NCBI GenBank assembly: GCA_030633225.1
Contig: DAOVTF010000024.1
Location: 1-11,794, forward strand
DNA from: Flavobacteriaceae bacterium
GTDB lineage: Bacteria; Bacteroidota; Bacteroidia; Flavobacteriales; Flavobacteriaceae
DNA length: 11,794 nucleotides
Direction of reading: 5' to 3'
Below, one piece after another: positions 780 to 11,794 of the stretch (positions within the stretch are counted from its first letter, which is position 1; the number at the start of each line of letters is the position of its first letter). The notes beneath the pieces were generated by a model, which saw only the letters and a list, made by a program, of their open reading frames with translations, did no database searches and had not been told where the DNA came from. A program made the translations under genes and the position numbers.

Positions 780-2972
780 ATGAAGAAATCCAATTGGTTT
801 ATCAGAGCTTTTGTTGGGATCGTTTTAGTAACTCTAGTTGTTACTGATGCTTATTCACAACAAACTCTTGACAATGTAAAAACAGCACGAGGTCTTAATG
901 ATCAAGATGTGTTGTCAGCTGTTAAAACGTTCATGCCACGAGGTGGTCGTGACGAGTATTTTTCGATTGTAGGAACTGGGAATTCCGGAACTATGATTGT
1001 TTATGGTTTACCATCAATGCGAATCTATAAATATGTAGGTGTTTTCTCACCTGAACCATGGCAAGGTTATGGTTTTGATGATGAGAGTTCGTTGATGTTA
1101 AAAAAATCATCGATGGATAATCGAATTAGTACCTATGGAGATATGCGTTTCCCTGCTTTTTCTGAAAAAGATGGAAATTACGACGGGCATTTTGCCTTTT
1201 TCTCTGATGGAGCTAATTCCAGAATTGCACTGATGGGATTGGATGATTTTGAAACTAAACAGGTATTGTCAAATCCTCTTTATATTAGTACTTATCCAGG
1301 TGTAGCTGTAACCCAAAACACAGACTACATAATACAGTCTAGTCAATATCCCGCTCCTTGGGATTCTAAGACTGCTGAATTAGGGTCAGATAAATTCAAA
1401 TCAGGAGTTACTTTCTGGAAATTTGTAGAAGGTGAAAATATCCATAAAAGTAGAATGATTAAAGAAAAATCTTTTACACTTGAATTGCCACCATATATAT
1501 TAGATTATTTTGATACAGGTAAAAAAGTAAGTGATGGCCTTATGGTTGGTCTGGCTGAAAAAGATGGTAAAAGTTATGTTTATGTGATCAACTATGATAA
1601 ACTATCAAAATCAGCAACTAAAAAAATAAATGATTTTAATGTAGTCTCTTTTGAGGAAGGTAAAAAAGATAATGTTGTTGGATTTATTGCGTTACCTGCA
1701 ACTGCTAAAACAGTGAAAGTTACACCCGATGGTAAATATTTTGTTGTTGGAGCCGATAATACATTGGTTTTTGATTTTGGCAAAGTAAAAAATGCTTTAA
1801 GTAAAGGTTCAACTATTGATGCAAGTAGTGTACAAAAAGCAAGTATAGCAATTGGAAAAAATGTAATTGATATTGCATTTGACCAACGTAAAAATACTGC
1901 TTATGCTTCGGCACATGGAGATAGTAAAATTGTTCGTTTTAACTATGAAACTGGTAAAACTGAAACGGAATTGAAATTGAGTTTTCAACCTAGTTATTTA
2001 ATGACTCCACAGGGAATGTCAGTTTCACCTCATTCAAATTATTTGACTGTTGTGAATAAAGAAGGTTTATATGACAATTATCCAAATGTAGGCCCTGTTC
2101 GTCCAAGTTTCCAACATTTAATTGATATTTCATCGGATAATATGGCCGACATTTATACAATGAGTTTACCTCAGGCAAATATGTATGGGTCAGTTGCAGT
2201 ATTACGTACTACAATTAAACCTATTATTCGTTATCCATTAGGTACCAATACACGTACAGGTGAGATTTCTCGTTACAAAACAGTAGCTGGGCAAGAAAAA
2301 ATTGAAAGAGAAGGTAATAGGGTTCATATATTTGGAACCTTGATTCGTTCTCATATTACTCCGGAAATTGTTACTGTTAATGAAGGTGATGTCGTTACTT
2401 TTCACTTAACTAATTTAGAACGTGCGGAAGATGAAACTCACGGGTTTACTGTTGATACTTATGGCGTTCATGGTAGTTTTGAACCAGGTAAAACAGCTTC
2501 TGTTACTTTTACAGCTGACAGACCTGGTATTTTTCCATACTACTGTACTGAGTTTTGTTCTGCTTTGCACTTAGAGATGGAAGGTATTTTATTAATACGC
2601 CCAACAGGATATGTAGATATTGAGCAAAAAGAAGTAGTACTTACCAAAGAACAATTAGAAGAATACAAGGTACTTTACGAAGAGAAATTAGTGGTTATTG
2701 ATCAAACTCAGGATATTATCAATGGAGTTGTTACTTGGTTGAAGGAGAATAATTTTGGTGATTATCCTTATGTAGCAGCCTTGGTTGATGATGCATTTGA
2801 CCAATTGAAACAAGCCGAAACATCTAAAGCAAATCACGAGAGATATGCCAAAGAAGGTAAATATAAAGATGCGTTCTTATGGGCAGAACAGTACTGGCAA
2901 TATCAGGTAAAAACTGCAGATGTTGGTTTACGTGCTAAGAAACTCTTAAGTGAAAAAGTTAATGCAGAATAA
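780..2972 (+). CDS. nosZ: NosZ-family CuA subunit lacking the CuZ site (periplasmic)
   Basis: A NosZ homologue of 730 aa, collinear with its downstream neighbour over the propeller and cupredoxin domains. A Sec signal peptide spans residues 1-26 (cleavage likely AYS/QQ). The degenerate seven-bladed propeller (about 30-500) has lost all seven CuZ histidines: R123-F124 stand for the HH pair, followed by Y172, K310, D364, Y406 and R441. It also lacks about 30 residues of a loop present in the neighbour. The cupredoxin domain (about 510-615) has a complete CuA site: H554, C589, E591 (backbone ligand), C593, H597 and M600, in the motif CTEFCSALHLEM. A charged, mostly helical tail follows (620-730). 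The protein should therefore carry electrons but cannot form CuZ. I infer that it is the electron-transfer partner of the next gene, 29 bp away in the same transcript. ATG start without Shine-Dalgarno, as usual in Bacteroidota. An automated annotation would probably just call it nitrous oxide reductase. Confidence 0.93.
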   Translation: MKKSNWFIRAFVGIVLVTLVVTDAYSQQTLDNVKTARGLNDQDVLSAVKTFMPRGGRDEYFSIVGTGNSGTMIVYGLPSMRIYKYVGVFSPEPWQGYGFDDESSLMLKKSSMDNRISTYGDMRFPAFSEKDGNYDGHFAFFSDGANSRIALMGLDDFETKQVLSNPLYISTYPGVAVTQNTDYIIQSSQYPAPWDSKTAELGSDKFKSGVTFWKFVEGENIHKSRMIKEKSFTLELPPYILDYFDTGKKVSDGLMVGLAEKDGKSYVYVINYDKLSKSATKKINDFNVVSFEEGKKDNVVGFIALPATAKTVKVTPDGKYFVVGADNTLVFDFGKVKNALSKGSTIDASSVQKASIAIGKNVIDIAFDQRKNTAYASAHGDSKIVRFNYETGKTETELKLSFQPSYLMTPQGMSVSPHSNYLTVVNKEGLYDNYPNVGPVRPSFQHLIDISSDNMADIYTMSLPQANMYGSVAVLRTTIKPIIRYPLGTNTRTGEISRYKTVAGQEKIEREGNRVHIFGTLIRSHITPEIVTVNEGDVVTFHLTNLERAEDETHGFTVDTYGVHGSFEPGKTASVTFTADRPGIFPYYCTEFCSALHLEMEGILLIRPTGYVDIEQKEVVLTKEQLEEYKVLYEEKLVVIDQTQDIINGVVTWLKENNFGDYPYVAALVDDAFDQLKQAETSKANHERYAKEGKYKDAFLWAEQYWQYQVKTADVGLRAKKLLSEKVNAE

Positions 2973-3001
2973 TCTTAGGTCAATCTAAAAACGAATAGAA
3001 A

Positions 3002-5710
3002 ATGAAAAATATATTAAATAAAAAATACAGCTCAATTTTAATGATGAGCTTGTTTGTTGCTACTTTAGGCTTATTTACAGTAAGTTGTGGTGACAAGGAT
3101 AAAAAAGGAGATGACTATGCAGGTGGGACAAATATTTCCGGAAAACCTTACGGAAAAGAATCTTTTGGAGATGTAGTAAAACGTAGAGGATTGAATGCTG
3201 AAGATGTATTATCAGCTGCTAAAACCTATACTCCTGATAATTTAAAAGATGAATATGTAGCTTTAAATTCAGGAGGTCAAGAAGGTAACTTACCTATGTA
3301 TACAGTACCTTCAATGCGTATGTTAAAGTATGTTCCTCTTAATACACGTCAACCATATTCTGGTTTTGGATATAGTGAAGAAACTTATGGCTTAATGGAA
3401 GATGGCTTTATTGAAGGTCAAGAAATTTTATGGGGAGATACGCATCACCCTGGTTTCTCTGAAACTGATGGTGTTTATAATGGAAAATGGGGTGTAATTA
3501 ATGATAAAGCAAACCCAAGAATGTATGTTTATGACTTGAATGACTGGCATGTTAAACAGGTGGTAAATAGTAAAATATTCCGTTCTAATCATGGTGGAGC
3601 ATTTTTTACTCCTGACTCTCGTTATGTTATGGAAGCTTCACAATATCCATCTCCAATGGATTGGAAATACCATGAATTAAGTGAAGCTAACTTCGAGAAA
3701 TATTGGAGAGGTGGTCTAACTTACCATAAATTTGATAATGAAAAAGGAAGAATTATTGAAGAAGAGTCTTTTACATTTGAATTTCCTCCTTATACGCAAG
3801 ATTTATCAGATGCTGGTAAATTAGATTCTTATGGTTGGGGATTCACTAATTCATTTTGTACAGAAATGTATTATGGTGGTATAGAAAGTGGTCGCCCTCC
3901 TTTTGAAGCAGGATGTTCTTCCAGAGATGTAGATTATTTGCATGTAACCAATTGGAAAAAAGCTGAAAAACTATTGAAAAATGGAACTATCAGACCAAAA
4001 ATGGTTCGTGGTCATAAAGTAATTACAATAAAAGATGCTGTTAAACATAGTCTGTTTTTCTTGATTCCTGAACCAAAATCACCTCATGGTGTTGATGTTG
4101 ATCCAACTGGACAATATATTGTAGTAGCAGGTAAATTAGACTCTCATGCTTGGGTTTATAAATTTGATAAGATAATGGCTGCTATTGATAGTAAGAATTT
4201 TGAAGGAACTGATAGGTATGGTATTCCTATTATTAAATTAGAAGATGCTTTACACGGTAGTGTTGAGGTTGGATTAGGACCATTACATAATCAATATGAT
4301 AGTAAAAAAGGTGTAATCTATACTTCAATTTATGTTGATTCACGTATCACAAAATGGGATTATATCAATTTAAAAGTATTGGGTCATGTACCATCTCATT
4401 ATAATGTAGGTCACTTAGTTGCAGCTTCTGGAGATACTCAAAAACCTCATGGTAAATATTTGATCTCATTAAATAAATTATCTATTGACCGTTTTAATCC
4501 GGTAGGACCACTTCATCCACAAAATCACCAATTAATAGATATAAGTGGTGATGGAGATCCAAAAGTTATTTATGATTTACCATTACCAATGGGGGAACCA
4601 CATTATACTGGCTTAATTCATTTAGATGAATTTAGTTCAATTGATGTTTATCCAATTGGAACTAATATTGCAACAAGTAACAAGTCTAAATATTTTACGG
4701 CTTTAGGTGCTGAAAAAGAAGTTGTAAAAGGTAATACTGTGCGTATTTATGGTACAATTAAAGATGGAAAAGTAACACCGGCTAATATTAATATTACACA
4801 AGGTCAAACAGTGTATTTACACTTGAGTAATCACGGGGAAACTAAATTAGATCATTATGTTTACCAAATTTCATCTTACGATAAAATGTATCATTATAGC
4901 CCTGGTGAAACAGCAACAATTAAATTTAAAGCTGAAAAGGCAGGTATGTATCCGTTATTATTAGATTCTCAAAACAGTCCAGACAAACGTCAGCTTATTG
5001 GATATATGGCTGTTAATTACAATCAAAAAGCTGAAACAGATCGTGTATTAGCTTATACAGATAGAATTAATGCTGATATGAAAATGCAATCGTTTAAACC
5101 ATCAGCTATAGAGTTAGAAAATTTACTACCAGGTGAGCTTGAATTCTTAAACTATGGCTGTAGTGCTTGTCATAAATTTGCAGAAGAATTTAACGGGCCT
5201 GATTTATTTATGATTGATAAACGTAGAGATGATAAATGGTTGAAAGAATGGATTATGGATCCTGAATCTAAAATGAAAGATGCTGATATTGAAGCAATGC
5301 GTCAACATTATAAATTAGCGATGCCTAATCAAAATGTTTCTGAACAAGATGCAAATAAGATTATTGCTTTTATGAAAGCTAAAACTGAGCAAATATCTAA
5401 AGAGAAATCTAGCGATACTCCAGTTGTAACTTCAGGTGGTGATTTTGGAAATGGTAAAGCTACTTATGACACAAAATGTATGGCTTGTCATGCTACCGGT
5501 GTTACAGGTGCACCTAAATTAGATGAAAAAGAGCGTTGGGCAACTATTGCTGGTCAGGGTATGAATGTTATACAAGATCATGCTGTTAAAGGATTCCAGG
5601 GTAAACAAGGAGTGATGCCTCCAAAAGGTGGATTTACTGATTTATCTGACGATGATATTAATAATGCTATTAAATATATGTTACACCAAGCAGGTGCAAC
5701 TGCAAATTAG
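3002..5710 (+). CDS. nosZ: NosZ-family CuZ catalytic subunit fused to two cytochrome c domains (lipoprotein)
   Basis: Predicted catalytic subunit of N2O reductase, reducing N2O to N2 in the periplasm. The leader ends in a loose lipobox with C29, so it is probably membrane-anchored. The propeller (about 45-565) has every CuZ histidine in its family motif: H148-H149 (DTHHPGFS), H197 (NHGG), H362 (SPHGVDVDP), H429 (GLGPLH), H471 (VGHL) and H505 (VGPLHP). The cupredoxin-like domain (about 575-675) aligns without gaps to the CuA loop of the upstream protein but has L654, S656, N658, K662 and L665 where the ligands belong, so CuA is lost. Two class I cytochrome c domains follow: C720-C723-H724 with likely axial M774, and C826-C829-H830 with M872 in a MPPKGG motif of c5/c555 type. 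At 902 aa it is far longer than the roughly 600-680 aa of a plain NosZ. Known haem-fused NosZ, as in Wolinella, has one haem and keeps CuA. Confidence 0.95.
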   Translation: MKNILNKKYSSILMMSLFVATLGLFTVSCGDKDKKGDDYAGGTNISGKPYGKESFGDVVKRRGLNAEDVLSAAKTYTPDNLKDEYVALNSGGQEGNLPMYTVPSMRMLKYVPLNTRQPYSGFGYSEETYGLMEDGFIEGQEILWGDTHHPGFSETDGVYNGKWGVINDKANPRMYVYDLNDWHVKQVVNSKIFRSNHGGAFFTPDSRYVMEASQYPSPMDWKYHELSEANFEKYWRGGLTYHKFDNEKGRIIEEESFTFEFPPYTQDLSDAGKLDSYGWGFTNSFCTEMYYGGIESGRPPFEAGCSSRDVDYLHVTNWKKAEKLLKNGTIRPKMVRGHKVITIKDAVKHSLFFLIPEPKSPHGVDVDPTGQYIVVAGKLDSHAWVYKFDKIMAAIDSKNFEGTDRYGIPIIKLEDALHGSVEVGLGPLHNQYDSKKGVIYTSIYVDSRITKWDYINLKVLGHVPSHYNVGHLVAASGDTQKPHGKYLISLNKLSIDRFNPVGPLHPQNHQLIDISGDGDPKVIYDLPLPMGEPHYTGLIHLDEFSSIDVYPIGTNIATSNKSKYFTALGAEKEVVKGNTVRIYGTIKDGKVTPANINITQGQTVYLHLSNHGETKLDHYVYQISSYDKMYHYSPGETATIKFKAEKAGMYPLLLDSQNSPDKRQLIGYMAVNYNQKAETDRVLAYTDRINADMKMQSFKPSAIELENLLPGELEFLNYGCSACHKFAEEFNGPDLFMIDKRRDDKWLKEWIMDPESKMKDADIEAMRQHYKLAMPNQNVSEQDANKIIAFMKAKTEQISKEKSSDTPVVTSGGDFGNGKATYDTKCMACHATGVTGAPKLDEKERWATIAGQGMNVIQDHAVKGFQGKQGVMPPKGGFTDLSDDDINNAIKYMLHQAGATAN

Positions 5711-5813: not shown

Positions 5814-6638
5814 ATGAATGATCATGCAAAAAAATTCGGACTTTTCTATAAACTTTTCGCTATAGTTGGGTTATTGTTGATGATTGCAGTATATTTTATG
5901 CCTATATGGTGGGTAGCTTTACAAAGTCATCAATATCCAAAATCTATGTACCCAAAAGGTATTCGTATTGAATTCAAATATGATGGAGTTTATAATGGTT
6001 GTGAAGGAGTTCAAGAAAGAGCAGAAATAACAACAAATGAAGGAGCGGATTGTTTGATGGAAATGACAGCAATTAATCATTATATTGGTATGTATCCAAT
6101 AGTACAAGGTGTCAACAGTCGAGTGTTTGATGAACTAAAAGAAGGGCAAATAAAACCTGTGCCAGAATACTATGTTTTTGATACTGAAAAAGATGGAGAA
6201 GGTGAAGATGTTATTGATCCTAAAACAGGTAGTCCGTTACAAGTAGATGTAACACCACAATATTTAAAAGTATTGAATGGAATTTTGGTCTATTCAAGGT
6301 ATATTTTTATTTTTTTCGGAGTATTAATAATTATTTTTATTGTTACTCCTAAAAAGAAGAATGCAATATTTGCCATACTACCAGCACTATTGCCTTTTTA
6401 TTTTCTTTTTCTGTATATGTATTCTATGTATTGGTATGGACATCATTTAGATTTACATGGAGGTGGAGCTTTTGCAGGGATTAAACCATTTATGCCGACC
6501 GTTTTCGGACTTGGCAAAGTAGCTCAATTTGAAACAGTATCTTATCCTTATTATGGGTTTTATATTGCACTTTTAGTGTTTGTCGTTTTAATTTTCTCCA
6601 TTTTATTTAAAAGAAAATATATAGAATTACAAAAATAG
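5814..6638 (+). CDS. nosB: NosB-like polytopic membrane protein of the nos cluster
   Basis: An integral membrane protein of 274 aa with about four membrane segments: 11-33, 161-178, 184-207 and 247-265. A large loop (about 36-155), likely periplasmic, holds C63, C80 and the motif NHYIGM (88-93). A second loop begins with HH at 210-211 and H215 followed by GGG. The position directly behind nosZ and before nosD matches the membrane protein called NosB in clade II nos clusters; that name rests on position, topology and my memory of the NHYIGM motif, not on an alignment. Its role is unsettled in the literature; electron transfer or cofactor assembly are the usual suggestions. The His, Met and Cys residues near the membrane face would suit copper handling, which is inference. 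It follows a terminator by 53 bp, so it may depend on read-through or its own weak promoter. Confidence 0.6.
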   Translation: MNDHAKKFGLFYKLFAIVGLLLMIAVYFMPIWWVALQSHQYPKSMYPKGIRIEFKYDGVYNGCEGVQERAEITTNEGADCLMEMTAINHYIGMYPIVQGVNSRVFDELKEGQIKPVPEYYVFDTEKDGEGEDVIDPKTGSPLQVDVTPQYLKVLNGILVYSRYIFIFFGVLIIIFIVTPKKKNAIFAILPALLPFYFLFLYMYSMYWYGHHLDLHGGGAFAGIKPFMPTVFGLGKVAQFETVSYPYYGFYIALLVFVVLIFSILFKRKYIELQK

Positions 6639-6763: not shown

Positions 6764-8065
6764 TTGAGAAGTTATTTCCTAATAATAGTTATCTTTTTGC
6801 AATGGAGTGTGTTTTCACAAGAAAACAACTCCAATGGTGCTGGTTTACAAAATAAAATTACACCATTTAATTCTGAAGAGAATCAGGTATTTCTTAATAC
6901 TTTACTTAAAAATTTAAAACCTGGTGATACTTTAAAACTAAAACCAGGATTTTATACTGGTCCTGCAACTATTAAAGTGCCTAATATAGTAATTGATGGT
7001 GGTGGTAAAGCTACCATTTCAGGTATGGATAATGAATCAGTTATCTATGTTAAAGCTGATAGTGTTACCATTAAAAATTTACATATTACTAATTCAGGTG
7101 ATTCTCCTGACAGGTTGGATGCAGGTGTAAAAATTATTGAAGCAAATCATACCATTGTTAAAAATAACCTAATTGATGAATGTTTGTTTGGAGTTGATAT
7201 TTTTAAATCTGATAATTGCATTGTAGAACATAATGATATTTCATCCATCAGTACAAAACCTTTAGCATTAAAAGGTGATGCAATTCGTCTTTGGTACTCA
7301 ACCAATAATAGAATAATGTTTAACTACTGGCACAAAGTGCGTGATATGGTAGTTTGGTATTCCTCTGAAAATCATTTTGAAGGCAATAAAGGAGTAGGGA
7401 ATAGGTATAGTATTCATTTTATGTATGCTCATAATAATCGTATTCATAAAAATGAATTTTATGGTAATTCGGTAGGAGTATTTCTAATGTATAGTGAACA
7501 AACAATACTTTCTGAAAATTTAATTCAAGGCTCAGTTGGTTCAACAGGTATGTGCTTAGGATTAAAAGAAACTTCATCTAATCAAATATTAAATAATCGG
7601 TTTTTGTATTCTGCCTATGGTATTCATTTTGATGTATCACCTTTTGTACCCGAAAAAATTAACACAGTGGTTGGTAATGAAATAGCATTTTGTAATGTAG
7701 GAATGCTTTTTCACTCTGATCTTGAGGGTAATTTAGTACAAGAAAACTATTTACACGATAATTTAACCCAGGTATATACACGTGGTAATACTGCAAATGG
7801 GAATAAGTTTGATGGTAATTACTGGAGTGATTATCAGGGATTTGATAAAAATGGTGACAATGTAGGTGATGTACCTTATAAATTATATAGTTATAGTGAA
7901 CATTTATGGGCATTCAATAAAAATATAAAATTCTTTTATGGTGCTCCAATATTAGAAGTTTTAGATTTTTTAGAACGATTAGCACCATTTTCTAAACCAA
8001 AGTTTGTTTTAAAAGATAAGAATCCAATTTATAAATGGGAACGTAATAAAGAACGAGATTATTAA
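6764..8065 (+). CDS. nosD: NosD, periplasmic beta-helix maturation protein
   Basis: NosD is needed, together with the NosF/NosY transporter, to build the CuZ cluster, probably by supplying sulphur or copper in the periplasm. This 433-aa protein has the normal NosD length. A signal peptide (residues 1-19, likely cleavage VFS/QE) is followed by the repeated N- and I-rich turns of a right-handed parallel beta-helix, for example IVIDGGGKATISG, TIKNLHITNSGDSP and NRIHKNEFYGNSVG (CASH-domain type). The late segment DGNYWSDYQGFDKNGDNVGD is a recognisable NosD signature. The start is TTG at 6764: an in-frame stop at 6749 leaves no upstream ATG, and starting later would cut the signal peptide. It opens the maturation and electron-supply block and ends 11 bp before nosG. 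Confidence 0.93.
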   Translation: MRSYFLIIVIFLQWSVFSQENNSNGAGLQNKITPFNSEENQVFLNTLLKNLKPGDTLKLKPGFYTGPATIKVPNIVIDGGGKATISGMDNESVIYVKADSVTIKNLHITNSGDSPDRLDAGVKIIEANHTIVKNNLIDECLFGVDIFKSDNCIVEHNDISSISTKPLALKGDAIRLWYSTNNRIMFNYWHKVRDMVVWYSSENHFEGNKGVGNRYSIHFMYAHNNRIHKNEFYGNSVGVFLMYSEQTILSENLIQGSVGSTGMCLGLKETSSNQILNNRFLYSAYGIHFDVSPFVPEKINTVVGNEIAFCNVGMLFHSDLEGNLVQENYLHDNLTQVYTRGNTANGNKFDGNYWSDYQGFDKNGDNVGDVPYKLYSYSEHLWAFNKNIKFFYGAPILEVLDFLERLAPFSKPKFVLKDKNPIYKWERNKERDY

Positions 8066-8076
8066 ATTTCAACAGT

Positions 8077-8910
8077 GTGAAAAAAACAGATCCAGAAATT
8101 AATAGACGGCAGTTTCTAAAAAACGGAGCCTTTGCAGTAGCTGCAATAGGTGCTGTTGGAGTAGGAGTAAATTATTTAAGGAAACCTAACGAAGAAAATA
8201 CATTAACCTTATTGCGTCCCCCAGGAGCAATACTTGAAGATGAATTTATTTATGCATGTATCAAATGTGGACTTTGTGTTCAGATATGCCCGATAGAGGC
8301 TGTTAAGTTAGCTGGTATTTCTGATGGCCTTTCTTATGGCACCCCATATATTGATCCGCTTGCGCAAGCTTGTGATTTTTCATGTGATGCCATGCAATGT
8401 GTTGAAACTTGTCCAACTGCAGCTTTAGATTTTGTTCTATTTAAAAAAGCAGGAGAAGGTGCTTTAATTGAATATCAAAAAGCCAATCCAACTCCAGGAC
8501 CTGATTATAATCCATTTGTTGTTCAATCTCAAGCCATGAAGGCAACTACAAAAATGGGCTTAGCAGTTATTGATAATTCTACTTGTTTGGCTGTAAAAGG
8601 AAAAGGATTTAAAGGAGTTCCAAGAGAATCTGGATTTGAAGGTGTATATCGTTCGCCTAATCCAAAGCGTGAAGAAAGAAAAGCTTCACTTGTAAATAAT
8701 CATCAGTTTGATCGTGAAATTTGTGATTTATGTGTTACCGAATGTCCTATTGGAGAAATAGCTATTATTTTAGAAGAAAAAACAGGAGCTAACGGTAGTA
8801 AACTATGGCAACCAAAAGTTTTAGATGCTTGTACAGGATGTGGGGTTTGTGTTATGGTTTGTCCAACAACACCAAGTAGTATTATTATTGAAAAATTAGA
8901 AATGGTTTAA
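8077..8910 (+). CDS. nosG: NosG, NapG-like ferredoxin with Tat signal
   Basis: A NapG/MauM-type iron-sulphur protein, which together with NosH is thought to form a menaquinol dehydrogenase feeding electrons to periplasmic carriers. A twin-arginine leader (RRQFLKN at 10-16, then a hydrophobic stretch to about 31) targets it folded across the membrane. Four [4Fe-4S] sites are visible: C61/C64/C67/C71, C99/C103/C108/C112, C216/C219/C223 with the displaced C170, and C252/C255/C258/C262. The gap between C170 and C216 is unusually long (about 45 residues) compared with NapG as I recall it. The start is GTG at 8077; it gives the correct Tat leader. It lies 11 bp after nosD and 11 bp before nosH, so they are surely co-transcribed. 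In this context the substrate system is N2O, not nitrate, reduction, since no nap genes are seen. Confidence 0.9.
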   Translation: MKKTDPEINRRQFLKNGAFAVAAIGAVGVGVNYLRKPNEENTLTLLRPPGAILEDEFIYACIKCGLCVQICPIEAVKLAGISDGLSYGTPYIDPLAQACDFSCDAMQCVETCPTAALDFVLFKKAGEGALIEYQKANPTPGPDYNPFVVQSQAMKATTKMGLAVIDNSTCLAVKGKGFKGVPRESGFEGVYRSPNPKREERKASLVNNHQFDREICDLCVTECPIGEIAIILEEKTGANGSKLWQPKVLDACTGCGVCVMVCPTTPSSIIIEKLEMV

Positions 8911-8921
8911 AATATTTTCTG

Positions 8922-9854
8922 ATGATAAATTTAAAAAAATTAACACCAATACCTGCAAAACGTAGAGAAGAAATGCCTAATTCTAAATTGGGGATCACCT
9001 TTAAAGAATGGAAGGCCAATAATCCTAACAAAAACAAATGGCGTAATTTACGTTGGGGAGTTTTACTTTTTTTTAATTTCCTATTTTGGGCGTCGTTTGC
9101 TTTTGATATAGGAGTTTTGGAAGGTTCACTTAGTGGGTCTAGATTTTTAGGTATTTACCTTATGGATCCTTTTAACGCTCTACAAGAAATGTTTATTGGT
9201 AGTAGAACCGGATATTTTGCAATGTTAACCATGAATTTTTTTATTGGTTTTTTTATCATTTTAATATTTTATTTTTTATTGGGTGGTCGTACTTTTTGCT
9301 CATGGCTTTGTCCATATCACTTTTTAGCAGAAAATGCCGAAAAACTACATAATTATCTTGTAAAAAAGAAGAAAATCAAAGAACACACTTACAGTATCGG
9401 AATCAAATACATTTTTTGGGTAGGATTCTTGTTACTGGCTATTTTAACCAAGAATTTAGTCTTTGAAAATCTAAATCCAGTAGGAATTATTTCAAGAGCA
9501 ATTATTTATGGTCCGGGTTTAATATTATTGTGGATCTTTGTTTTATTACTTTTTGAAATTGTATATTCCAAACGTTTTTGGTGTAGATATGTTTGTCCTA
9601 TAGGAGTTACTTATAGTTTTATTGGTAAATTATCACCAACGGCTATAAAATTTGATTTATCAAAATGCGGGCATTGTAGAGATTGCCAGGATGTTTGTTT
9701 GGTTCCACATGAATTATGGTTTGTAAAGCGTGGTGAAGCTACAAAAGAAATCCATTTTGCTGGTGCAGATTGTACCAGATGTGGTTTATGTGTAGACATT
9801 TGTTATGGAGATGCTTTATCGTATTCCATAAGAGGTTTTGATAAAATAACATAA
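8922..9854 (+). CDS. nosH: NosH, NapH-like membrane quinol dehydrogenase
   Basis: The membrane partner of NosG: it is thought to oxidise menaquinol and pass electrons through iron-sulphur centres. The 310-aa protein has four membrane segments (about 45-62, 98-120, 162-180, 195-214). Two family motifs of the form CxxxCP are present: C126/C130 and C221/C225. Two [4Fe-4S] ferredoxin motifs follow at the C-terminus: C249/C252/C255/C259 and C284/C287/C290/C294. This is the NapH pattern. With no NosR gene in the window and NosG just upstream, it is the best candidate for the quinol-linked entry of electrons. It ends 50 bp before nosF. Confidence 0.92.
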   Translation: MINLKKLTPIPAKRREEMPNSKLGITFKEWKANNPNKNKWRNLRWGVLLFFNFLFWASFAFDIGVLEGSLSGSRFLGIYLMDPFNALQEMFIGSRTGYFAMLTMNFFIGFFIILIFYFLLGGRTFCSWLCPYHFLAENAEKLHNYLVKKKKIKEHTYSIGIKYIFWVGFLLLAILTKNLVFENLNPVGIISRAIIYGPGLILLWIFVLLLFEIVYSKRFWCRYVCPIGVTYSFIGKLSPTAIKFDLSKCGHCRDCQDVCLVPHELWFVKRGEATKEIHFAGADCTRCGLCVDICYGDALSYSIRGFDKIT

Positions 9855-9904: not shown

Positions 9905-10564
9905 TTGATATTGGAAGATTCAGAAATTTTAATTACAGTTGACCAGCTTACAAAATCATTTAAAAAAACTACTGTAATTGAGAACTTAACGCATAGTTTT
10001 AAAGCTGGTGAACGAATAGCATTAGTAGGTCAGAATGGAGCCGGAAAAACAACATTAATTCGTTGTCTTTTAGGCTTATATAAATATAAGGGTACTATTG
10101 AAGTTCTTGGTATGAATCCTCGGAAAGAACGAGAATTAATTCTTCAAAACATTGGTTTTGTACCTCAGATTCCTCCACCTATAAAAATGACCGTTGGGGA
10201 AATGTTAGATTTTTTCGGGAAACTTACCAATACAGATAAACAAGAATTTATTGATATTAGTGAAAATTTAGGTTTAGATGTAAAAGGTAATCTCAATAAA
10301 CCTTTTATGAAACTATCTGGTGGAATGAAGCAAAAACTTTTAGTATCTTTTGCTTTAGGTAGAAAACCAAAAATATTATTGATGGATGAACCTGCTGCAA
10401 ATTTAGATCCAAAGGCCAGATCCATTTTATTTGATTATTTACATAATTTTGATAAAAATGCTTTGATGATTATTAGTAGTCATCGAATTGATGAGGTTGA
10501 AGATCTTGTAAATCGTTTAATAGAAATGGATATGGGTAAGATTGTAGTTAATAAAGAAGTATAA
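9905..10564 (+). CDS. nosF: NosF, ABC transporter ATPase for CuZ assembly
   Basis: The ATPase that powers NosY. All ABC motifs are in order: Walker A GQNGAGKTT (42-50), Q-loop Q88, signature LSGG (137-140), Walker B ILLMDE (157-162) with catalytic E162, D-loop NLD, and switch H193. At 219 aa it is a compact, bare nucleotide-binding domain without the C-terminal extension of longer NosF proteins. No ATG precedes the domain. The start is TTG at 9905, though TTG at 9911 two codons later is equally possible. It is followed by nosL after 27 bp, with nosY beyond, which places the ATPase and its permease in the same transcript but not adjacent. Confidence 0.92.
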   Translation: MILEDSEILITVDQLTKSFKKTTVIENLTHSFKAGERIALVGQNGAGKTTLIRCLLGLYKYKGTIEVLGMNPRKERELILQNIGFVPQIPPPIKMTVGEMLDFFGKLTNTDKQEFIDISENLGLDVKGNLNKPFMKLSGGMKQKLLVSFALGRKPKILLMDEPAANLDPKARSILFDYLHNFDKNALMIISSHRIDEVEDLVNRLIEMDMGKIVVNKEV

Positions 10565-10591: not shown

Positions 10592-11143
10592 ATGAAAAAA
10601 CTAGCAATAATTTTTACCTTTTTATTAATCTTTAGTTCATGTAAACAAAATGTAACTTATGAAGCTCGTGACATTAATTTTGATCGTGATATTTGTTATG
10701 TCTGCCTGATGGGGTTGACAGATCAACGTTATAATGCGCAATCTATTAACGAATATGGAGAGGTTCACTGGTATGATGATATTGGATGTTTGGCTGAAGA
10801 AATGAGAGATACCTCAACATGGAATCAATGGAAAGGAGAAACAGTAAAATTTTGGATTGGAGATGCCAGTAAAGGAAATGATCCTTCAAACTGGATTAAT
10901 GCAGAAACAGCATTTTATGATTATGGTAAACATACACCTATGGGTTATGGTTATTCTGCTTATTCTGAAAAACCAAGTGTAGATAGTGTTTTTACTTTTG
11001 AACAGGTTTTACAACGAATTAATGCGGGTAAAACAATGCGTGAAAATTTTATTCAGGAAAAGATGCTCATGATGAAAGATAATCCTGAAAAATTAAAAAA
11101 GTTAGAGGAAAAGTTAAAGAAAGAACAAAATAAAAATAACTAA
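10592..11143 (+). CDS. nosL: NosL, copper chaperone lipoprotein
   Basis: NosL binds Cu(I) at the outer face of the membrane and supplies it for CuZ maturation through NosD and NosFY. The 183-aa precursor has a lipoprotein signal with lipobox FSSC (C17). The mature protein begins with the family copper motif C35-x-x-C38-x-M40 (ICYVCLMGL), followed by the conserved segment around HWYDDIGCLAEEM and the WIGDA and TAFY...TPMGYGY regions typical of the family. The last 30 or so residues form a highly charged, lysine- and glutamate-rich helix. ATG start, no Shine-Dalgarno. It sits between nosF and nosY, 27 and 40 bp away. Confidence 0.93.
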   Translation: MKKLAIIFTFLLIFSSCKQNVTYEARDINFDRDICYVCLMGLTDQRYNAQSINEYGEVHWYDDIGCLAEEMRDTSTWNQWKGETVKFWIGDASKGNDPSNWINAETAFYDYGKHTPMGYGYSAYSEKPSVDSVFTFEQVLQRINAGKTMRENFIQEKMLMMKDNPEKLKKLEEKLKKEQNKNN

Positions 11144-11183: not shown

Positions 11184-11794
11184 ATGAAAAGTTTTGAAAG
11201 TTTAAAAGAGATTATTTATTCAGATATTCGCCAAAGTTTACGATCTCGTTGGTTTTGGGCGTATAGCATCTTATTTGGTGGTTTTGTTGCAATCATGTTT
11301 ACTTCTGGCATTACCGAATCTCAAATTATTGGGTTTGTTGGTCTAAGTCGACTTATGGTAACCTTTATGCAAATAAGTATGGCAATTCTGCCAATTTATG
11401 TACTTATTTCAACGGTACGTTCTGTTGTAGGAGATCGAGAAAACAGTGTAATGGAGTATATACTTTCTTTACCAATTTCTTTTAGCAGTTATTTTTGGGG
11501 AAAACTTATCGGAAGGTTTATAATTATTTATACACCAGTTTTTATTGCATTGCTCGGTGCTGTATTATGGGCTTTATTAACAAATATTGAAGTGCCATGG
11601 GATCTTTTCTTTTTATACAGTATTTTATTAGCTTCCTTAGTGATTTTATTTCTGGGGTTATTTATGTATATTGCAGCTATAGCTTCTTCACAAGATATTG
11701 CTGTAAGTACTGCATTTATCATTTGGTTATTTCTAGTGGCATTTATTGATTTGATTTTAATAGGAATAATGTTGAGAATGCGTGGTAATCCTGA
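11184..11794 (+). CDS. nosY: NosY, ABC transporter permease (3' end cut by window)
   Basis: The reading frame opens with ATG at 11184, 40 bp after nosL, and stays open to the last base, giving about 203 residues of a normally 260-280 aa protein. Visible are an amphipathic start (SLKEIIYSDIRQSLRSRWFW), five hydrophobic segments, and the NosY-type motif VVGDRENSVMEYILSLPI (about 79-96) in the cytoplasmic loop after the second segment, which is typical of ABC-2-like permeases that dock with their ATPase there. With NosF it should form the transporter that works with NosD in building CuZ. The C-terminal membrane segment and stop lie beyond the window. Confidence 0.92.
   Translation, partial: MKSFESLKEIIYSDIRQSLRSRWFWAYSILFGGFVAIMFTSGITESQIIGFVGLSRLMVTFMQISMAILPIYVLISTVRSVVGDRENSVMEYILSLPISFSSYFWGKLIGRFIIIYTPVFIALLGAVLWALLTNIEVPWDLFFLYSILLASLVILFLGLFMYIAAIASSQDIAVSTAFIIWLFLVAFIDLILIGIMLRMRGNP

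What the first reader, a model, noticed from the sequence alone, without database searches (positions are those of the whole stretch)
780..5710. Two tandem NosZ homologues with reciprocal loss of CuA and CuZ: a possible obligate two-subunit N2O reductase
Aligned by eye, the two proteins are collinear homologues, yet each keeps exactly the copper site the other has lost. First protein: CuA intact (H554, C589, E591, C593, H597, M600) and all seven CuZ histidines replaced (R123, F124, Y172, K310, D364, Y406, R441). Second protein: all seven CuZ histidines present (H148, H149, H197, H362, H429, H471, H505), with CuA ligands replaced by L654, S656, N658, K662, L665. Known NosZ is a head-to-tail homodimer in which CuA of one chain faces CuZ of the other, so this division is structurally feasible as a heterodimer. 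Both frames are intact, which argues against decay. I know of no described example but could not search.
Basis: partly seen in the sequence, partly recalled or inferred. Interest (0 to 1): 0.96.

Follow-up and report, generated by a model that had tools for sequence, protein, structure and literature searches.

The report
Two-part nitrous oxide reductase
Two neighbouring genes encode relatives of the enzyme that destroys the greenhouse gas nitrous oxide, each keeping the binding residues of only one of its two copper sites, and the same pair recurs in dozens of uncultured bacteria, where the two proteins are predicted to join into one working enzyme.

Summary
Protein A (780-2972) keeps every CuA ligand and no CuZ histidine; protein B (3002-5710) keeps all seven CuZ histidines and no CuA ligand.

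The split is conserved. It recurs in 79 A-type loci of uncultured Bacteroidota, Chlorobiota, Melioribacteraceae and Cloacimonetes; B follows A in all 71 loci where it could be seen, in a nos operon, under purifying selection. Undivided relatives with both sites and A's C-terminal tail sit in the same operon, pointing to duplication and reciprocal loss.

The known subunit interface splits likewise: B keeps the CuZ side with its Ca2+ clamp loop; A keeps the CuA side and lost the loop in 74 of 74. This supports an A-B heterodimer with one active site. Pairing and activity are untested.

Against "obligate": this genome also has a canonical nosZ in its own operon, cut only by the contig start. In 47 of 49 other pair genomes examined none was found, their completeness untold.

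The parts
780..2972 (+). Protein A: NosZ homologue with CuA only (Sec-type N-terminus by eye, degenerate propeller about 50-500, CuA cupredoxin about 508-608, C-terminal helical tail about 620-728)
   Evidence: NosZ_Gp score 434 against a cut-off of 625
2439..2579 (+). CuA site region of A (H554, C589, E591, C593, H597, M600; F592 and L598)
3002..5710 (+). Protein B: NosZ homologue with CuZ only (conserved Cys29, likely lipoprotein; propeller about 75-560, degenerate cupredoxin about 570-672, two c-type haem domains)
   Evidence: NosZ_Gp score 632.5 against a cut-off of 625
3443..4603 (+). CuZ ligands of B, H148 to H534, with K492 and E532
3836..3931 (+). Ca2+ clamp loop of B (residues about 279-310; E288 and D309), deleted in A
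   Evidence: function of the loop from PMC11573801
5159..5707 (+). C-terminal part of B with haem motifs CSACH (720) and CMACH (826)
5814..6638 (+). Membrane protein conserved in these nos operons, no named family above cut-off
6764..8065 (+). NosD (maturation)
   Evidence: TIGR04247 364.5 against 300
8077..8910 (+). NapG-like ferredoxin (below the family cut-offs)
8922..9854 (+). NapH/MauN-type membrane ferredoxin
   Evidence: TIGR02163 232.9 against 213
9905..10564 (+). NosF-like ABC ATPase (name by position in the operon)
10592..11143 (+). NosL-like protein (17.9 bits, below the Pfam cut-off of 24)
11184..11794 (+). Start of a membrane permease running off the contig end, likely NosY by position
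   Evidence: no NCBIfam match

Best explanation
A and B are predicted to be the two subunits of one nitrous oxide reductase that arose by a likely tandem duplication of an undivided nosZ, after which each copy lost the opposite copper site. Shown: the ligand split, its conservation, the fixed A-B gene order, the nos operon, purifying selection on both genes, and undivided relatives holding both sites and A's tail. Inferred: A and B pair head to tail as NosZ homodimers do, so that CuA of A faces CuZ of B and forms one combined active site per dimer. Also inferred: electrons pass from the haem c domains of B, or from the neighbouring NapG/NapH branch, to CuA of A and then across the interface to CuZ of B, where N2O is reduced to N2. 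The second, reciprocal interface (A propeller with B cupredoxin) would be structural only. NosD and the NosF-like and NosL-like proteins of the operon would load CuZ in B.
For: (1) Ligand split: in 79 A-type loci, all 72 that cover CuA have five of five side-chain ligands, and the 76 that cover CuZ have 0 (62) or 1 (14) of seven histidines. Of 68 B, all 63 that cover CuZ have seven of seven, and all 62 that cover CuA have none of five. (2) B follows A on the same strand in 69 of 79 loci, and in two more its start lies in the last 333-410 bases of the contig; seven contigs end at or inside A, and one (L083) is uninformative (the part that ran). (3) In the 42 pair loci with at least 5 kb after B, the membrane gene is found in 42, NosD in 41, NapG-like in 38, NapH-like in 37, NosF-like in 30, NosL-like in 22 (a recount without L078; contig ends may explain part of the fall). 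(4) Undivided NosZ with both sites and an A-type tail in 12 genomes (L092-L103), in the same operon order in the five examined (L078, L124-L127). L078 is 45% identical to A and 42% to B, while A and B are 28% identical to each other. The tree sets A, B and the undivided type apart from ordinary clade II (98%), and a tree holding A and B as one clade fits better by 12.8 log units (p-AU 0.74). (5) Interface halves, read against the Marinobacter structure paper PMC11573801 (passages, sections): B keeps in 65 of 65 the Ca2+ clamp loop that grips the other subunit, Glu488 (E532) and the clade II residue at the K+ site (Q507); A lost the loop in 74 of 74, has Asn467 in 74 of 74, and S, G or N at the K+ position. 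Phe617 of the cupredoxin is F592 in 73 of 73 A and mostly replaced in B; position 623 is L598 in 73 of 73 A and Arg in 61 of 63 B (the A and B counts include the window's own). (6) dN/dS 0.058-0.125 for A and 0.094-0.134 for B against eight loci. (7) 47 of 49 pair genomes examined show no other NosZ. (8) The B model matches solved NosZ (TM 0.80-0.84 by target among the 50 rows shown).
Against: No complex was modelled and nothing was expressed. The A model was poor (mean pLDDT 63). Correlated divergence of A with B (r 0.88 in 38 loci) is no higher than between other operon genes (0.83-0.90); the partial correlation of 0.43 is only suggestive, and A with NapH reaches 0.36. K450, a lysine beside CuZ with a suggested catalytic role, is also kept in A (K427, 74 of 74), and 41 of 74 A still align an Asp at the second Ca2+ carboxylate although the loop is gone. 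This genome has a canonical NosZ, and so do the pair carriers of its genus in the sample, so the pair is not the only route there. Carriers are rare among well-sequenced genomes: 1 of 395 in the phylum sample, the window's own. The haem domains of B leave open direct transfer to CuZ without A.
Confidence: 0.78

Rival explanations
1. B alone reduces N2O, taking electrons directly from its own haem c domains to CuZ; A is a separate CuA electron carrier or an assembly factor and is not part of the active dimer.
For: B has one haem motif in 42 and two in 11 of the 53 loci counted, and an ORF with a CxxCH motif follows within 1.6 kb in 28 of the 42 (two of these ORFs, in L038 and L081, are only 75-80 aa and may be chance). 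B keeps CuZ with K492 and E532.
Against: B keeps the clamp loop and the interface residues that in Marinobacter touch the CuA cupredoxin of another chain, while its own cupredoxin lost the matching residues. A lies directly upstream in all 71 loci where the pair could be seen, with an extremely conserved CuA domain (mean 0.93 against 0.75 for its propeller).
Confidence: 0.13
2. The pair is an A-B complex, but reduces another substrate than N2O; the canonical NosZ, where present, does the N2O step.
For: The window's genome has a canonical NosZ with its own operon, and so do the pair carriers of its genus in the sample.
Against: CuZ ligands, K492, E532 and a nos maturation operon are kept; 47 of 49 other pair genomes examined show no canonical NosZ; the undivided L078 protein passes the NosZ model well (848 against 625).
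Confidence: 0.07
3. One or both genes are decaying duplicates, or the pair is an assembly artefact.
For: Ligands are lost in each copy.
Against: dN/dS 0.06-0.13, the same replacements across phyla (A D364 and Y469 in 120 of 120 listed homologues), and 79 separate contigs.
Confidence: 0.02

Closest known systems
Clade II (Sec-dependent) NosZ, homodimer
   Same: Homologous over the whole chain, same CuA and CuZ ligand columns, nos operon; B just passes TIGR04246 (632.5 against 625)
   Different: One chain carries both sites in clade II; here each chain lacks one, and A falls below the model (434)
Cytochrome-c-fused NosZ (cNosZ, as in Wolinella succinogenes; recalled)
   Same: C-terminal haem c on the CuZ-bearing chain
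   Different: As recalled, cNosZ keeps CuA in the same chain; B has none
Undivided NosZ with helical tail (L078, L092-L103)
   Same: Nearest group to both A and B in the tree, same operon order in the five examined
   Different: Single gene with both copper sites
DPANN nosZ-like proteins (PMC10936187, passages read)
   Same: NosZ-like proteins with CuA and without CuZ; in two MAGs a short cupredoxin-like protein with five conserved histidines lies directly upstream and groups with clade II NosZ
   Different: Shorter proteins (56-617 aa), mostly among acyl carrier protein genes; only two of the MAGs have the second protein, and it was not in their complementation test
Clade III lactonase-type NosZ (L-NosZ, NF052460; PMC11033732 passages)
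   Same: Another divergent NosZ type beside nos genes
   Different: Single protein with a lactonase-type propeller; A and B score 72 and 100 against a cut-off of 700

Membership tests
Clade II NosZ (protein A alone) | Seven CuZ histidines | tested here: not met
   0 of 7 in A; at most 2 in 120 listed homologues
Clade II NosZ (protein A alone) | CuA ligand set H-C-C-H-M | tested here: met
Clade II NosZ (protein A alone) | TIGR04246 score over cut-off | tested here: not met
   434 against 625
Clade II NosZ (protein B alone) | Seven CuZ histidines | tested here: met
   7 of 7; 120 of 120 listed homologues
Clade II NosZ (protein B alone) | CuA ligand set H-C-C-H-M | tested here: not met
   0 of 5
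Clade II NosZ (protein B alone) | TIGR04246 score over cut-off | tested here: met
   632.5 against 625
NosZ (the A-B pair taken together) | CuA and CuZ brought together across a head-to-tail dimer interface | tested here: inconclusive
   Complementary interface residues and clamp loop; no complex was modelled
NosZ (the A-B pair taken together) | nos maturation genes in the operon | tested here: met
   NosD above cut-off; NosF-like and NosL-like by position and weak scores
NosZ (the A-B pair taken together) | N2O reduction | not testable with these tools
   needs an assay
L-NosZ (clade III) | NF052460 score over cut-off | tested here: not met
   72 and 100 against 700
cNosZ (cytochrome c fusion) | CuA, CuZ and haem c in one chain (recalled) | tested here: not met
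   B has CuZ and haem c, no CuA

The most novel reading that the evidence does not exclude
A true two-subunit nitrous oxide reductase: after tandem duplication each copy gave up one copper centre, so that neither can work alone, and this heterodimer with a haem c lipoprotein subunit is the only N2O reductase of many uncultured Bacteroidota and allied bacteria.
Probability: 0.7. Interest if true: 0.92.

Novelty: new variant of a known kind. Interest (0 to 1): 0.88.

Why it matters
The structure paper read here describes the typical NosZ as a head-to-tail homodimer in which CuA of one chain meets CuZ of the other (PMC11573801). A natural version with the two sites on two proteins would let each centre be studied and mutated alone, including whether one active site per dimer suffices and which electron route is used. 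It would be a clear case of a homodimer turned heterodimer by reciprocal loss of active-site halves, with undivided relatives still present in other genomes. It matters for gene surveys too: the window's B passes the NCBIfam NosZ model and A does not, so such organisms may be counted as ordinary N2O reducers on a protein that lacks CuA.

Tried and rejected
Pseudogene decay and assembly artefact: rejected. Chance alignment of ligand columns: rejected. Canonical NosZ absent from the genome, as the strong form of the claim needs: rejected; it is on C235, and G002 carries a canonical gene and the end of its pair operon on one contig. Correlated divergence as proof of contact: tried with operon controls and found not specific. 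Structure: the A model was too poor to use; the B model is usable. No A-B complex was attempted. Branching order of A, B and the undivided type is unresolved in the quick tree, though the tree with A and B together fits better. My first count of operon genes included L078 among the pair loci; it was recounted without it. In one search L078 also stood among the B rows; one search counts without it. Seven paper searches (one search returned nothing) listed no paper whose title or abstract start tells of a split or two-protein NosZ. Only listings were seen, plus passages or sections of four papers. No preprints and few subscription papers are held, so this is not proof that it is unpublished.

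Full report
What is in the window. The contig holds a nos operon on the + strand: protein A (780-2972), protein B (3002-5710), a membrane protein, NosD, a NapG-like and a NapH-like ferredoxin, a NosF-like ATPase, a NosL-like protein and the start of a permease that runs off the contig. A and B lie 29 bases apart. Upstream of A no + strand ORF of 30 aa or more was listed.

The ligands. Against the NosZ found on contig C235 of the same genome, which has both sites, A has every CuA ligand and no CuZ histidine; B has all seven CuZ histidines and no CuA ligand.

How widely it occurs. A scan of GTDB species genomes with an alignment of 22 A proteins gave 89 loci, of which 80 were kept. 79 are A-type and one (L078) is not. 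By record title the 79 are MAGs or uncultured genomes of Flavobacteriales, Saprospiraceae, Bacteroidales, other Bacteroidota, Melioribacteraceae, Chlorobiota and one Cloacimonetes; L008 and L009 share one genome, as do L054 and L076. B directly follows A on the same strand in 69 of 79; two more show the start of B before the contig ends; seven contigs end at or in A; L083 is uninformative (the part that ran). The rest of the nos operon follows. In a sample of 395 phylum genomes, 370 of them at least 90% complete and at most 5% contaminated, only the window's own genome has an A-type match, while 128 others have a single NosZ match. So the pair is rare among well-sequenced genomes, and all carriers found by title are uncultured.

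Is the pair the only NosZ? I asked this for 50 of the 80 loci (the tool takes 50 at a time; my choice). Of 49 pair genomes, 46 have exactly two matches at the places of A and B, one (G005) has two pairs, and two (G001, G002) have a canonical NosZ as well. Their completeness is not told. The window's genome (67% complete) also has a canonical NosZ on C235, followed by its own membrane protein, a likely NosL, NosD, an ABC ATPase and a permease. Among the 149 genomes, both A and B are found in the own genome, G741 and G746 of the same genus (G741 has the same coordinates as G002) and G812 of the same order; G727 of the genus has an A piece only. These genus members all have a canonical NosZ too; G812 does not. 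But three MAGs titled Lutibacter (G003, G004, G005) show the pair without a canonical gene, so within this neighbourhood the pair is an addition in some genomes and seemingly alone in others.

Origin. L078, a deltaproteobacterial MAG, has a single NosZ with both sites and the C-terminal tail otherwise found in A. Searching its phylum gave 120 of 282 genomes with a match, many weak. Of the 30 loci fetched, L092-L103 (12 genomes, L078's own included) have both sites and the tail (129-133 residues from the CuA methionine on); L104 and L105 have both sites but their frames end soon after CuA; L106-L121 have both sites without the tail. The five operons examined keep the order NosZ, membrane protein, NosD, NapG, NapH, NosF, NosL, and L078 has two ORFs with haem motifs between NosZ and the membrane protein. 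In a tree of 67 rows chosen by me (21 A and 21 B, from the window and 20 of the 79 loci; the 12 undivided; 13 canonical) A and B are each one clade (100%), and A, B and the undivided type are set apart from the canonical ones (98%). The order among the three was open; holding A and B together gave a better likelihood by 12.8 and was not rejected. Both A and B sit on long branches, so this is not proof. Tandem duplication of an undivided gene followed by reciprocal loss is the simplest account; it is inferred.

Selection. Against eight close loci, dN/dS is 0.058-0.125 for A and 0.094-0.134 for B (pairwise counting method, dS up to 1.2). In A the CuA cupredoxin is the most conserved part (mean 0.93) and the propeller the least (0.75); in B the propeller is more conserved (0.82) than the cupredoxin (0.75).

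A test of pairing by sequence. The Marinobacter structure paper (sections 9 and 12 read) names features by which the propeller of one chain meets the cupredoxin of the other: a Ca2+-bound loop of blade IV that contacts the partner's cupredoxin, a K+ site at the interface, Glu488 which bonds to Phe617 of the partner, and Phe617 and Met623 which control access to the substrate site. If A and B pair with one live interface, B should keep the propeller half and A the cupredoxin half. That is what is seen. I dropped rows of 550 residues or fewer, which left 74 A and 65 B with the window's own, 14 undivided and 19 canonical. The loop with both Ca2+ carboxylates stands in 65 of 65 B, 14 of 14 undivided and 19 of 19 canonical (37 instead of 44 residues in three of the canonical), but is deleted (23 instead of 44 residues) in 74 of 74 A. 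Glu488 is kept in B and Asn in A, 65 of 65 and 74 of 74. Phe617 is kept in A (73 of 73) and mostly replaced in B. The Met623 position is Leu in A as in the undivided type, and Arg in 61 of 63 B. Against the pattern, Lys450 is kept in all four groups, and 41 of 74 A still align an Asp at the second Ca2+ position. The matching to Marinobacter numbering was done by counting residues from the ligands, using the Shewanella and Pseudomonas chains printed, and not by superposing structures.

Electron entry. B starts with a lipoprotein-like signal whose cysteine is invariant (68 of 68). Of 53 loci in which I counted haem motifs, 42 B have one and 11 have two; an ORF with a CxxCH motif follows within 1.6 kb in 28 of the 42 and in none of the 11 (two of the 28 ORFs are only 75-80 aa). 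In the window the second haem domain is thus likely a fusion of that gene. Haem c to CuA of A to CuZ of B is the likely route; it is inferred.

Structure. The B model (pLDDT 72) matches solved NosZ, TM 0.80-0.84 by target in the rows shown. The A model (pLDDT 63) was too poor for conclusions, though NosZ was its best match (TM 0.46-0.49). No complex was computed.

Literature. Seven searches listed no description of a split NosZ. The nearest idea seen in print is in DPANN archaea, with nosZ-like proteins that have CuA and lack CuZ and, in two MAGs, an upstream histidine protein (PMC10936187, passages).

Verdict. A real, conserved two-gene form of NosZ, not described in what I searched. The heterodimer is the best reading at about 0.78. 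It is a new variant of a known kind, of high interest, and directly testable.

Noticed in passing
G000 contig C235 (L128 1-6290): A second, canonical nos operon in the same genome: nosZ with both sites (cut at the contig start), membrane protein, likely NosL, NosD, ABC ATPase, permease.
   Followed up: yes
G005 (L008 and L009): One Lutibacter MAG carries two A-B pairs; one B has one haem motif, the other two.
   Followed up: partly
28 loci, for example L015 5321-5740: A separate ORF with a haem motif follows B where B has one haem; in the window's type it is likely fused to B.
   Followed up: partly
L092-L103: A NosZ type with both copper sites and a conserved C-terminal tail of about 129 aa of unknown role, in the phylum of a deltaproteobacterial MAG.
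   Followed up: partly
window 780-5710: Annotation effect: sources name A relatives cytochrome C or nitrous-oxide reductase and B relatives Sec-dependent nitrous-oxide reductase; nosZ surveys may count such genomes once or twice.
   Followed up: no
window 5814-6638: Membrane protein without a named family above cut-off, present in 42 of 42 pair loci with at least 5 kb after B; role unknown.
   Followed up: no
A residues R123, D364, Y469: The lost CuZ site of A is filled partly by nearly fixed residues rather than random ones (R 119, D 120 and Y 120 of 120), perhaps a salt bridge that stabilises the empty propeller hub.
   Followed up: no
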